In this document: positions 34,501 through 40,686 of the stretch, in pieces
Layout of the letters: each line of letters starts with the position of its first letter
Position numbering within the stretch: position 1 is the first letter of the stretch
Source: Rhea pennata
Taxonomy: Eukaryota > Chordata > Aves > Rheiformes > Rheidae
NCBI RefSeq assembly: GCF_028389875.1
Contig: NC_084702.1
Coordinates: 68,793,582 to 68,857,581, forward strand
Direction of reading: 5' to 3'
DNA: 64,000 nucleotides
The notes under the pieces: model-generated
Told to the model about the DNA's origin: nothing
What the model saw: the letters and a program-made list of their open reading frames with translations, nothing else
Databases searched by the model: none
Program-made: the position numbers and the translations under genes

Positions 34501-37500
34501 GATTAATTGTCCAGATGTGACTTCTACCTGAAGTGGAGCTACATTCCCTGACTTTAGCACTGAAGACTTACTTGATCTGGGTTTTGCTGACGAATGATTT
34601 CAAATTATTCCTACAAAACACTAGAAGAAGATAGCTGACCAAGTGAGAAAACCTAGAACGGTTTTAGCTGAAATGCCTCATGGCTTTGCAGCTGCTAGAA
34701 ATGTAGAAAGGGCCTCTTCTCAGTAATCTTGCTGAGTACCTCTGAAACAGCCAGGGTCTAGGATGCTTGTAATGGTAGGATAGGCTAAAATGTTCAGTTC
34801 TTCTGACTGTCACACATTTTTTCTAGCTCTCAAGTGCACAAGGCAAAATATTATAGGGGAAAATATTTTTATATGTGATGTTTTATTCAAAGAATGACCT
34901 ATATGGTTCAAGAATTAAGGCTACTATTTGTAGTAGGTGCTAAATTTAATTTTTAAAAATTGACACTTAGTCTAGTTACTTTTATTTAACTTAACTTACT
35001 TTTATTTAACTTAACTTTTATTTAACTCCAAAATGTACACTAAAAGTATTCAAAACTCTTTGGGAATTTGAAAGACTTTTTAAATGAGACCTGTGTGGAA
35101 CAGTGATATTTTATCTCTGGTGAATGTATATAAAACTCTTAGCTATTTATCTATGTTGCACCAGAAATCTAATCCATTTTTATTAAAGATATTGCAAACA
35201 ACCAAATGATAGCATCAGTGTAAAAACTGCATAACAATATTTGTCTTTTTGAGCATCACTCATTTTAACTTCAATTCTTGGTAAGATTAATTTAATTGTG
35301 CATCTTTAATTCCCATCTAAGCATACCTGGGGGACAAGAGCTCTATTTCTAATGAAGAAGTTTTGCAAATTCTGCAGTAACTTCTGCAAATTTTCACTGC
35401 TTTCATTCTTCCTATTGGGTTCCTTTTCACCGGCAATAATGTGAAATAGCAGATGTTAAGGTTTAATTTAGATTTTTTTTTTTGAATGTGTAGTTTTTTT
35501 CTATTACAACATGAAGAAAATGAAGGTTCATTTTCCTGTTTTAAATCCTTCTGTCTCAGGTCACAACAGAAGAATTCATGAACTACTATGCAGGAGTCAG
35601 CGCTTCAATAGACACTGATGTCTATTTTATCGTCATGATGAAAAACGCTTGGAAACTCTAATTGTACGATTAAAGGAACAAGACTTTGTTTCCACTTTTT
35701 GTAGGTCCATATGATTAAGTATATGCTCATTTTCTGTAACCGCAGCTTCCAGGCACTGTGCAGGTTACAGCCAAGCTGCAGAGATAGCTGTCAGCGGCAC
35801 TGCTTTGGTAGGCTCCCCCTCAGAGCATCAGCAGCTTGCTTGGAAAGCAGACCTGGCAGCCAGCCACTTGGTAGACCTTTGCTTTTTCTTCCTGCATCCC
35901 TGACCTGTCTTTTCTTCTCTGAGACAAGCTTTTCCTTTCTTCTCTGCTGTCTGCAGTAAGTTCCAGTGGTTCCTGAGTGTATCCCCACTTCCACTGTTAG
36001 CTACAGCTCTGCTTGACAGAGGATGTGAGAGGAGGAAATATTTTGGAAGGCTTTGGTTTGGGCAGACAGTTATAAGTCTGTCCCATGAGGGACCAACCTC
36101 TACAGCGCTCAGCTATGTCAGTATGTGACACAGAGGTCACATACCTCCCTCTCCCCCAGCTCCATGGTGCCTCTCAGCTTCTTGTGCCTCACACGTGAGC
36201 AACGGCGTAAGTGTTCAGCTCAGTGCTGGGACCGTGTGAGTTCCCAGTGCTGGGAAGCTGCTGGAGGAATCAAATGAAAAAGGGGAGTCAGGGACCAATG
36301 TAAATGCTAAAGTCTTTATAAAAACCAATTTTTTCCCCTCTGCTGCTTACAGCTGTGTCAGCATTTTTGTGTGCATGCCTTGGTCCAGTTCTCTGTGGAT
36401 CTGATTACGTCTTTTCTTTTCCTTTGGTTCCCTTCTTTCTATACTCTAAGCTCACCTTCAAAGGGGCGTACATGTGTTACAGCCTTTTCTTCTCACTGGT
36501 CCTGGAACATTTACCGATGTGGTAGCTGTCGTCTATACATGGCTGTAACAAAAGTTACTTACTACTTTTTGTATTTATGCTGACTTATGGCCAACCTATG
36601 ACTCCAGGGAAGTCCTCAAAGCTTGATCGGCTGGTCTTACACAAACTGTGCTTTCCATTTTGTTTAAACATGAGCTCTTAGTACAAGCAACAGGTACCTG
36701 CAATTTCTTAGCAAAGGCTGTGCAAGATCAATGTTTCCCTTGATCCATAAGTCTCTAGAAACTTGCACACTGGTTAACACTGGTGGAAAGAGTCTCTCTA
36801 TGATGTTTGTCATCAGTCATAAGAGGAGTCATTACCTACTGCGATGCTACTGAGGTATCTATGTGCCTTACATGAAAAACAAACTTACCATCAGAGGTTT
36901 TCTATGTATTGGCACTGTATGTAGGACCCATTTCTTCTCATTTATTAATTGACTCCACAGCAGACTGTCATGTTATCCACCTAGTATGTTCCAAATAAAA
37001 AGAAAGTAATGTTGCTGGCCTGTGGGAATCACAAAATGAAAATTAAAATTATTTCCAAGTGACATATATTATCTAAATGTTTTGAACTCCACAGTGATCT
37101 GTTGTGCTGACTTTTAATCAAGCCCTGTGTAAATTTTAATCTGAATAACTAATTCTAAGCAGTTTGTCTGTTCTGTACTAACCCTTTCCGATTTTACATA
37201 ATCCTAAATGCAGTACACCTTTTCAGAAGGATTTTGTGTCAGCAGGAGCAGCACTCATGTCAAATGATGGCACTGGACCTAACTGCACCTTTTTAAAGTC
37301 AGCAGCAGCTTTGTCACTGGCCTCTGCGCACCTGGGTTTAAGCCTGTCACGGCTGACGAACGCTCGGTGCTTCAGGGTGGCGTTTCCCTCCCTGTTCTGC
37401 ACGGAGCTGACTAATGGGGTTTCGTGGTGGGGCCTGTAAGATGTGAGTGAGGAGAGCTCAGACCGCCCCGTGCTCGGGCGAGGGCCCTGTGCTCGCCCTG

Positions 37501-40500: not shown

Positions 40501-40686
40501 AATATGTTACATAAACATTCTGCTTTGGGCCACACTATATAGCTGTAGCAATGTTTTAAATCTGTTTTTTTTTTTCATTCCTAGGTTACAAAAGATGAAT
40601 TTTTGAACTACTATGCTGGAGTTAGTGCCTCTGTCGATAGTGATGCCTACTTCATTTTAATGATGAAGAAATCCTGGAAACTCTGA
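31393..40686 (+). CDS. CAPSL: CAPSL, calcyphosine-like EF-hand protein, two alternative last exons
   Basis: Exons 31,393-31,529, 31,746-31,923 and 32,749-32,958 join to one of two terminal exons, 35,560-35,661 (A) or 40,585-40,686 (B). Either choice gives 208 residues, the usual CAPSL length. The start is [16 protein letters not shown], preceded directly by acceptor TCTTCCAG. EF-hand loops: residues 52-63 (D52, D54, S56, E63; G6 replaced by Arg), 88-99 (canonical [12 protein letters not shown]), 124-135 (D124, D128, G129, D135) and a divergent fourth around 169-180. CAPSL is a cytosolic calcium-binding relative of calcyphosine linked to ciliated cells. It is convergent with IL7R. The duplicated last exon is the oddity; exon A is closer to mammalian CAPSL. 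Confidence 0.95.
31548..31605 (-). mobile_element. CR1 LINE 3'-end fragment
   Basis: AGAATCACAAAATGGTTGAG and GTCGGAAGGGACCTCTGGAG are the reverse complement of the avian CR1 3' end. The short piece lies in the 216-base first coding intron of CAPSL. Confidence 0.8.
31746..31923 (+). CDS. CAPSL: CAPSL second coding exon (EF-hands 1 and 2)
   Basis: Acceptor TTTCCACAG and donor GTAAGT. It encodes residues 46-105, including [14 protein letters not shown] and the canonical [14 protein letters not shown] loop. Confidence 0.95.
32749..32958 (+). CDS. CAPSL: CAPSL third coding exon (EF-hand 3 and first half of EF-hand 4)
   Basis: Acceptor CTTTACAG and donor GTAAGT, exactly 70 codons in phase 0. It encodes [16 protein letters not shown] and ends at [10 protein letters not shown] inside the EF-hand 4 loop, so the last exon decides how that loop is completed. 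Confidence 0.95.
33900..34330. mobile_element. Possible degraded LINE-type repeat
   Basis: The tract from GCTGCATTACACTGGTGACT to CATGAAAACATTAAACAAGA and ACTGGCCTCCACAATG reads like a dispersed amniote CR1/L3-class repeat. It is too mutated for firm assignment or boundaries. It lies in the CAPSL intron before terminal exon A. Confidence 0.3.
34977..35027 (+). repeat. 20-bp tandem repeat, 2.5 copies
   Basis: TTACTTTTATTTAACTTAAC occurs at 34,977-34,996 and 34,997-35,016, followed by a partial third copy. Confidence 0.9.
35560..35661 (+). CDS. CAPSL: CAPSL terminal exon A
   Basis: Acceptor TTCTGTCTCAG, phase 0, 33 codons plus TAA. It starts [20 protein letters not shown] and ends MMKNAWKL. 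It completes EF-hand 4 with Glu at loop position 12 (E180). It is nearly the mammalian CAPSL C-terminus, so it is the likely orthologous exon. An ATTAAA at 35,669 and an AATAAA at 36,994 could serve as poly(A) signals. Confidence 0.93.
36994..36999 (+). terminator. CAPSL: Candidate poly(A) signal for CAPSL isoform A
   Basis: AATAAA 1.3 kb after exon A; an alternative is ATTAAA at 35,669-35,674. Which one is used cannot be told from sequence. Confidence 0.35.
37494..37530 (+). repeat. 19-bp tandem duplication with paired TGACGTGA
   Basis: CGCCCTGGTGACGTGA occurs at 37,494-37,509 and 37,513-37,528. Each copy carries TGACGTGA, a CREB/ATF-like element, inside a local GC-rich patch between the two CAPSL terminal exons. 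Confidence 0.75.
39394..39450 (+). repeat. Poly-A tract (about 32 A) with A-rich tail
   Basis: About 32 A followed by ACAAACAAAAAACAAAAAAC and similar A-rich units, between the two CAPSL terminal exons. No retroposon body is recognised. Confidence 0.85.
40196..40219 (+). repeat. Poly-T tract (24 T)
   Basis: Uninterrupted T run about 365 bases before CAPSL terminal exon B. Confidence 0.85.
40585..40686 (+). CDS. CAPSL: CAPSL terminal exon B (duplicated alternative last exon)
   Basis: Acceptor TTTTTTCATTCCTAG, phase 0, 33 codons plus TGA. It starts [20 protein letters not shown] and ends MMKKSWKL. It has the same length and phase as exon A and is 24/33 identical in protein. Replacements are mostly conservative (T/K, E/D, M/L, I/V, T/S, V/A, V/L, N/K, A/S), and 12 of the 24 identical residues use a different codon. 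Glu at EF-loop position 12 is kept. This is the pattern of a selected exon, not a decaying copy. Poly(A) signals follow at 40,747 (ATTAAA) and 41,090 (AATAAA). Confidence 0.88.

What the first reader, a model, noticed from the sequence alone, without database searches (positions are those of the whole stretch)
35560..40686. Duplicated, intact terminal coding exon in CAPSL: two predicted EF-hand 4/C-terminus isoforms
Two terminal exons 5 kb apart each have a good acceptor, the same phase, exactly 33 codons and a stop. They are 24/33 identical. The nine replacements are mostly conservative, and 12 of the 24 identical residues use different codons. The core NYYAGVSAS and the MMK..WKL end are kept in both. 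This is what long-term purifying selection on both copies would leave. The exon border falls inside the EF-hand 4 loop, so the choice changes loop positions 10-11 and the C-terminal helix and could tune calcium or partner binding. Each exon has its own poly(A) signals, so the switch would couple splicing to polyadenylation. I know of no described bird CAPSL switch of this kind, but I could not search.
Basis: partly seen in the sequence, partly recalled or inferred. Interest (0 to 1): 0.85.

Follow-up and report, generated by a model that had tools for sequence, protein, structure and literature searches.

The report
Duplicated last exon of CAPSL gene
A gene for a small calcium-binding protein carries two old, intact, interchangeable-looking versions of its final coding exon, so it can probably make two proteins that differ only at the tail; this is a known kind of gene arrangement, and no RNA data were available to show that the second version is used.

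Summary
The window carries a complete CAPSL gene, and 5,025 bases downstream of its last coding exon (A, 35560-35661) lies a second one (B, 40585-40686) with the same phase, 33 codons, a stop and a strong acceptor. They share 24 of 33 residues; 12 of the 24 use different codons. Differences fall 4/3/17 on codon positions 1/2/3; dN is about 0.13, dS about 1.66. A copy decaying without constraint never gave this pattern in simulation (0 of 49,500). Clear similarity stops at acceptor and stop, and no other CAPSL exon is repeated: an old exon duplication. A is the human-like version (29/33; B 23/33).

Most likely B is, or was until recently, an alternative coding last exon, chosen by competition between splicing-plus-cleavage at A and skipping to B. 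Use of B is inferred: no RNA and no vertebrate relative could be reached. Calcium tuning is the weaker part: the usual ligand positions encoded here are unchanged and EF-hand 4 is degenerate; changed tail packing or partner binding is likelier. Duplicated C-terminal exons are a described class (77 of 236 human events): a new member of a known kind.

The parts
31393..31529 (+). CAPSL coding exon 1 (ATG at 31393; followed by donor GTGAGT)
   Evidence: tblastn with human CAPSL; spliced model
31746..31923 (+). CAPSL coding exon 2 (EF-hands 1 and 2)
   Evidence: tblastn, model, Pfam EF-hand on the spliced protein
32749..32958 (+). CAPSL coding exon 3 (EF-hand 3 and the first half of EF-hand 4), donor AAG|GTAAGT
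   Evidence: the 103-aa exon 3+A peptide matches 'Calcyphosin-like protein' 11yj 106-208, E 1.4e-62
35560..35661 (+). terminal coding exon A, 33 codons + TAA; human-like version
   Evidence: 29 of 33 residues as in human CAPSL
35669..35674 (+). ATTAAA, candidate poly(A) signal of exon A, 7 nt behind the stop
   Evidence: weak, see density
40585..40686 (+). terminal coding exon B, 33 codons + TGA, with strong pyrimidine-rich acceptor
   Evidence: 24 of 33 residues as in A, 23 of 33 as in human
40728..40752 (+). TATAAA (40728) and ATTAAA (40747), candidate poly(A) signals of exon B, followed by CA and a GT/T-rich stretch
   Evidence: weak, see density

Best explanation
CAPSL in this genome has an old tandem duplication of its last coding exon. 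Pre-mRNA either uses the proximal exon A with its own cleavage/polyadenylation site, giving the ordinary CAPSL tail, or skips A and joins exon 3 to exon B 7.6 kb away, with B's own poly(A) site, giving a second 208-residue protein that differs in nine tail residues. Shown: both exons, their phase, acceptors, stops, and the selection signature. Inferred: that B is transcribed and spliced, that the choice is made by competition between A's splicing-plus-cleavage and skipping, and that the two tails differ in packing or partner binding rather than in calcium coordination.
For: Same phase, same length, stop and acceptor in both. Differences by codon position 4/3/17, P 0.0002 for an even spread. 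dN/dS about 0.08 (dN 0.131, dS 1.66 by ML; 0.122 and 1.70 by LWL85; NG86 gave no dS and YN00 failed). With B neutral, 0 of 2000, 0 of 7500 and 0 of 40,000 simulations gave 17 or more third-position differences, 9 or fewer replacements and no stop; with B constrained up to 37% did (B at 0.1) and up to 58% (B at 0.05) at the best divergence tried. Replacements are conservative. B's identity to human (23/33) lies within the range of 33-residue windows of the shared part of the protein (22 to 31; 18 of 143 windows at 23 or less). Clear similarity ends at the acceptor and the stop.
Against: No transcript evidence. No relative from a second vertebrate was found, so selection rests on one pair of 33 codons with dS near saturation: only 111 of 300 bootstrap samples gave a usable dS, a biased subset, although in all 111 dN/dS was below 1. 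CAPSL as deposited in the PDB has the A-like tail; whether the human gene has a B is untested. Release of B from constraint over the last tenth of its history (P 0.18-0.19) or fifth (P 0.05-0.07) is not excluded. B has diverged more from human than A has.
Confidence: 0.75

Rival explanations
1. B is a relic: a once-used alternative last exon, or the last surviving exon of a tandem CAPSL gene copy, under constraint for most of its history but no longer expressed.
For: No transcript data; simulations allow B to have been neutral for about the last 10-20% of its branch (best P 0.18-0.19 and 0.05-0.07).
Against: Open frame, acceptor and stop all intact; acceptor scores above A's. No other CAPSL exon copy in the window, where a whole-gene copy would be expected to leave traces.
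Confidence: 0.15
2. B is transcribed only as a 3' UTR exon downstream of A's stop and is not translated.
For: B lies downstream of A on the same strand with a good acceptor.
Against: The pattern of differences is that of translated sequence, which a UTR exon would not keep.
Confidence: 0.04
3. Assembly artefact (two haplotypes or a misjoined copy) or a retrocopy.
For: None found.
Against: 25 of 102 bases differ, 17 of them at third positions, and the flanks show no clear similarity, so the copies are old; a retrocopy would carry exon 3 sequence in front of B, and none is there.
Confidence: 0.01

Closest known systems
Tandem duplicated exon substitution events of human genes, C-terminal class (PMC9741552: abstract, sections 6 and 9 and search passages seen)
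   Same: Homologous exons that swap one C-terminal region for another; replacements more conservative than chance; large hydrophobic residues change least.
   Different: 236 human events, 77 C-terminal, are reported; CAPSL is not named in the main text (supplements not seen). Here splicing of B is unproven.
Capping protein beta of human: homologous 3'-terminal exons with multiple poly(A) sites (PMC3228551: passages seen)
   Same: Same architecture: two homologous terminal coding exons.
   Different: Another gene; there the exons are described as spliced in annotated transcripts.
Alpha-actinin EF-hand exons (ACTN1/ACTN4; passage in PMC9741552, which cites Waites 1992 on chick, not seen)
   Same: Duplicated exons that alter an EF-hand region.
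   Different: Internal exons (recalled), and only one version keeps calcium binding; here the usual ligand positions in the exon are the same in both copies.
Calcyphosin-like protein (PDB 11yj), calcyphosin CAPS (3e3r), RIB22 (8g2z)
   Same: The window protein is CAPSL by sequence; with either tail it matches this family.
   Different: The deposited CAPSL has the A-like tail only.

Membership tests
CAPSL (gene identity) | full-length similarity to human CAPSL, same length | tested here: met
   145 of 175 residues in the shared part, 29 (A) or 23 (B) of 33 in the tail; 208 aa
CAPSL (gene identity) | gene neighbourhood LMBRD2 / CAPSL / IL7R | tested here: met
   LMBRD2-like pieces 30-9445 (+), IL7R-like pieces 54657-45388 (-), with recalled human queries (order in human recalled); UGT3A and SKP2 queries gave nothing
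Tandem duplicated alternative last exons | homologous exons, same phase, each with acceptor and stop | tested here: met
Tandem duplicated alternative last exons | both copies under purifying selection | tested here: met
   one pair of 33 codons only, recent release of B not excluded
Tandem duplicated alternative last exons | poly(A) signal behind each copy | tested here: inconclusive
   signals present but common in this sequence
Tandem duplicated alternative last exons | transcripts with either exon | not testable with these tools
   no RNA data available
Tandem duplicated alternative last exons | conservation of both copies across species | not testable with these tools
   no vertebrate genome collection; two searches found no vertebrate relative; the genome search own did not complete in seven tries
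Calcium-binding switch (alpha-actinin type) | one copy gains or loses calcium ligands | tested here: not met
   by sequence only: T and E at the usual ligand positions 9 and 12 in both (numbering recalled); EF-hand 4 below Pfam cut-offs in A, B, human CAPSL and CAPS; calcium affinity itself not measured

The most novel reading that the evidence does not exclude
A lineage-wide (bird or archosaur) CAPSL switch in which the two tails are made in different ciliated cells, for example airway versus sperm, so that a small ciliary EF-hand protein is fitted to different partners by choice of last exon.
Probability: 0.2. Interest if true: 0.6.

Novelty: new member of a known kind. Interest (0 to 1): 0.42.

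Why it matters
If B is used, an ordinary EF-hand protein has a second tail isoform that a comparison with the deposited human protein would miss. Three quarters of the isoforms from such events in human are reported as tissue-specific (abstract of PMC9741552), so this would give a clean handle for asking what the CAPSL tail binds and where. If B is not used, it is a well-preserved relic. Either way it is a modest addition to a described class.

Tried and rejected
Retrocopy, whole-gene tandem copy and assembly duplicate were considered and rejected or marked down: no other CAPSL exon copy in six frames (in one search the exon 2 scan was in the wrong frame and was repeated correctly), flanks without clear similarity. 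One further repeat pair near the exons, 35446-35482 and 40539-40575, 37 nt at 70%, is T-rich and sits at a different distance from the two exons; I take it as chance.

Relatives: viral contigs gave 16 pattern matches and no relative. Genome contigs gave 349 pattern matches and 2 loci with a relative; both are titled bacterial metagenome bins, and their matches cover residues 73-138 only, not the tail: not informative. Pfam on the ten longest of 121 listed open stretches found no family above its cut-off. Rfam at gathering scores: none.

Counts of five short splicing-type motifs in 300 nt upstream of A and of B and downstream of exon 3 showed nothing worth building on. The YN00 method failed in the script. 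I looked for the context of PDB 11yj (40 chains of CAPSL) by searching EFHC1: 11yj was not among the entries listed for the 5 sequences found at 1e-150, so what that structure is remains unknown to me. No structure prediction or fold search was run: the prediction tool asks for proteins read from the window, and I did not try it with a spliced protein. In the first simulations the best rates for the larger neutral fractions lay at the lowest divergence tried; repeated over a wider range and from either exon as ancestor they rose a little (for 20% from 0.054 to 0.069, for 50% from 0.0007 to 0.0035) and the conclusion stood.

Papers: ten searches were made: CAPSL or calcyphosine-like (179 papers, 25 listed), CAPSL + doublet microtubule, alternative last exon + tandem exon duplication (17, none), exon duplication + EF-hand and others, CAPSL + chicken + isoform, calcyphosine + cilia + axoneme + cryo-EM (36, 359, 15 listed), calcyphosin + microtubule (39, 41, 20 listed), CAPSL + multiciliated (40, 6), CAPSL + alternative splicing (49, 10), CAPSL + chicken (53, 11). 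No listed title or start of abstract describes a CAPSL tail switch; most listed papers were not opened. Passages only were seen of PMC6559987 and PMC11392532 ('exon' and 'isoform' do not occur in either main text), PMC13082021 and PMC11779644 (CAPSL does not occur) and PMC10973386 (CAPS2 only).

Full report
What is there. Spliced with either last exon the product is 208 residues. The shared 175 residues are 145/175 identical to human; tail A is 29/33, tail B 23/33. The neighbours are LMBRD2-like pieces on the same strand (30-9445) and IL7R-like pieces on the other (54657-45388), which is the CAPSL neighbourhood as I recall it from human.

The two exons. Both join exon 3 in phase 0, have 33 codons and a stop (TAA, TGA), and are 77/102 identical in DNA and 24/33 in protein, with 12 of the 24 shared residues coded differently. 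The direct repeat runs 35549-35659 against 40574-40684, that is from the acceptor to the stop. Beyond the first 20 bases upstream (11 of 20), ungapped identity in 20-base steps is 3 to 9 of 20 upstream and 2 to 8 of 20 downstream; one further pair, 37 nt at 70%, is T-rich and out of register. No other 33-residue stretch in six frames exceeds 9 matches to A, and no other CAPSL exon has a second copy in the window.

Selection. Of 24 differences in the 33 codons 4, 3 and 17 fall at codon positions 1, 2 and 3 (P 0.0002 for an even spread). ML gives dN 0.131, dS 1.66; LWL85 0.122 and 1.70; NG86 could not give dS and YN00 failed. Only 111 of 300 codon bootstraps had a usable dS; all of these had dN/dS below 1, 97.5 percentile 0.32. 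To ask whether B alone could have been free, I simulated A under constraint (0.05) and B neutral: 0 of 2000 (five divergence levels), 0 of 7500 and 0 of 40,000 (ten levels, either exon as ancestor) reached 17 or more third-position changes with at most 9 replacements and no stop. With B neutral for the last half of its branch the best rate at any level was 0.0035, for 30% 0.020-0.025, for 20% 0.068-0.069, for 10% 0.18-0.19, for none 0.58. So B was constrained for most of its life, but recent release cannot be excluded. The simulation uses one transition bias and one constraint value. The nine replacements are T-K, E-D, M-L, I-V, T-S, V-A, V-L, N-K and A-S, mean BLOSUM62 1.0.

Age and direction. 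Ten tail positions vary among human, A and B. At six human agrees with A, at none with B; at one A and B agree against human (K, K, R), and at three all differ. So either A looks ancestral because B has changed faster, or the split is older than that between this lineage and human; one outgroup cannot tell these apart. dS of about 1.7 means an old split, but it is close to saturation and I give no date.

How it would work. Acceptor B is the stronger by a crude matrix (99.85 against 98.1 percentile of 4775 AG sites; frequencies recalled). A is nearer and has an ATTAAA 7 nt behind its stop; B has TATAAA and ATTAAA 41 and 60 nt behind its stop, followed by CA and a GT/T-rich stretch. In that layout a nearer, weaker terminal exon competes with a farther, stronger one. 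A[AT]TAAA occurs 1.44 times per kb on this strand, so the signals prove little. Use of B is inferred.

What the tail change would do. With the usual numbering (recalled), exon 3 ends at loop position 7 of EF-hand 4 and the last exon starts at 8; positions 10 and 11 change (T-E to K-D), while 9 (T) and 12 (E) are kept. EF-hand 4 is degenerate: as a separate piece, A, B, human CAPSL and CAPS all score below the Pfam cut-offs, and the full proteins show three EF-hand stretches. By sequence the family includes RIB22 (entries 8g2z, 8g3d and 8sf7; that these are Tetrahymena ciliary microtubules is recalled, and a reference title seen places RIB22 there), so a partner-binding role in cilia is plausible but untested. 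I could not establish what structure 11yj is.

What is known. Duplicated, swapped exons are a described class; in human 236 events, 77 of them at the C-terminus, and replacements tend to be conservative (PMC9741552: abstract, sections 6 and 9 and passages). CAPSL is not named in that paper's main text (supplements not seen). Homologous 3'-terminal exons with multiple poly(A) sites are described for human capping protein beta (PMC3228551, passages). The ten paper searches listed under Tried and rejected showed no report of such a pair in CAPSL in their listings. Gene annotation databases could not be consulted, so an automatic annotation of both isoforms may already exist.

Verdict. New member of a known kind, function likely, use unproven.

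Noticed in passing
window 25001-27000: CpG-rich stretch (GC up to 0.73, CpG o/e up to 0.84) that ends about 4.4 kb upstream of the CAPSL start codon, perhaps its promoter or that of an unrecognised gene.
   Followed up: no
window 41001-43000: Second CpG-enriched stretch (o/e 0.55-0.85) between the converging 3' ends of CAPSL and IL7R, just behind exon B. The longest open stretch there (42509-43129, -) matches no Pfam family.
   Followed up: partly
window 9446-31392: No UGT3A-type C-terminal stretch was found between LMBRD2 and CAPSL (one recalled query), where I recall UGT3A genes in human.
   Followed up: no
window 39394-39452 and 40196-40219: A long A run and a long T run, about 1.1 and 0.4 kb upstream of exon B, that could pair in the transcript.
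   Followed up: no
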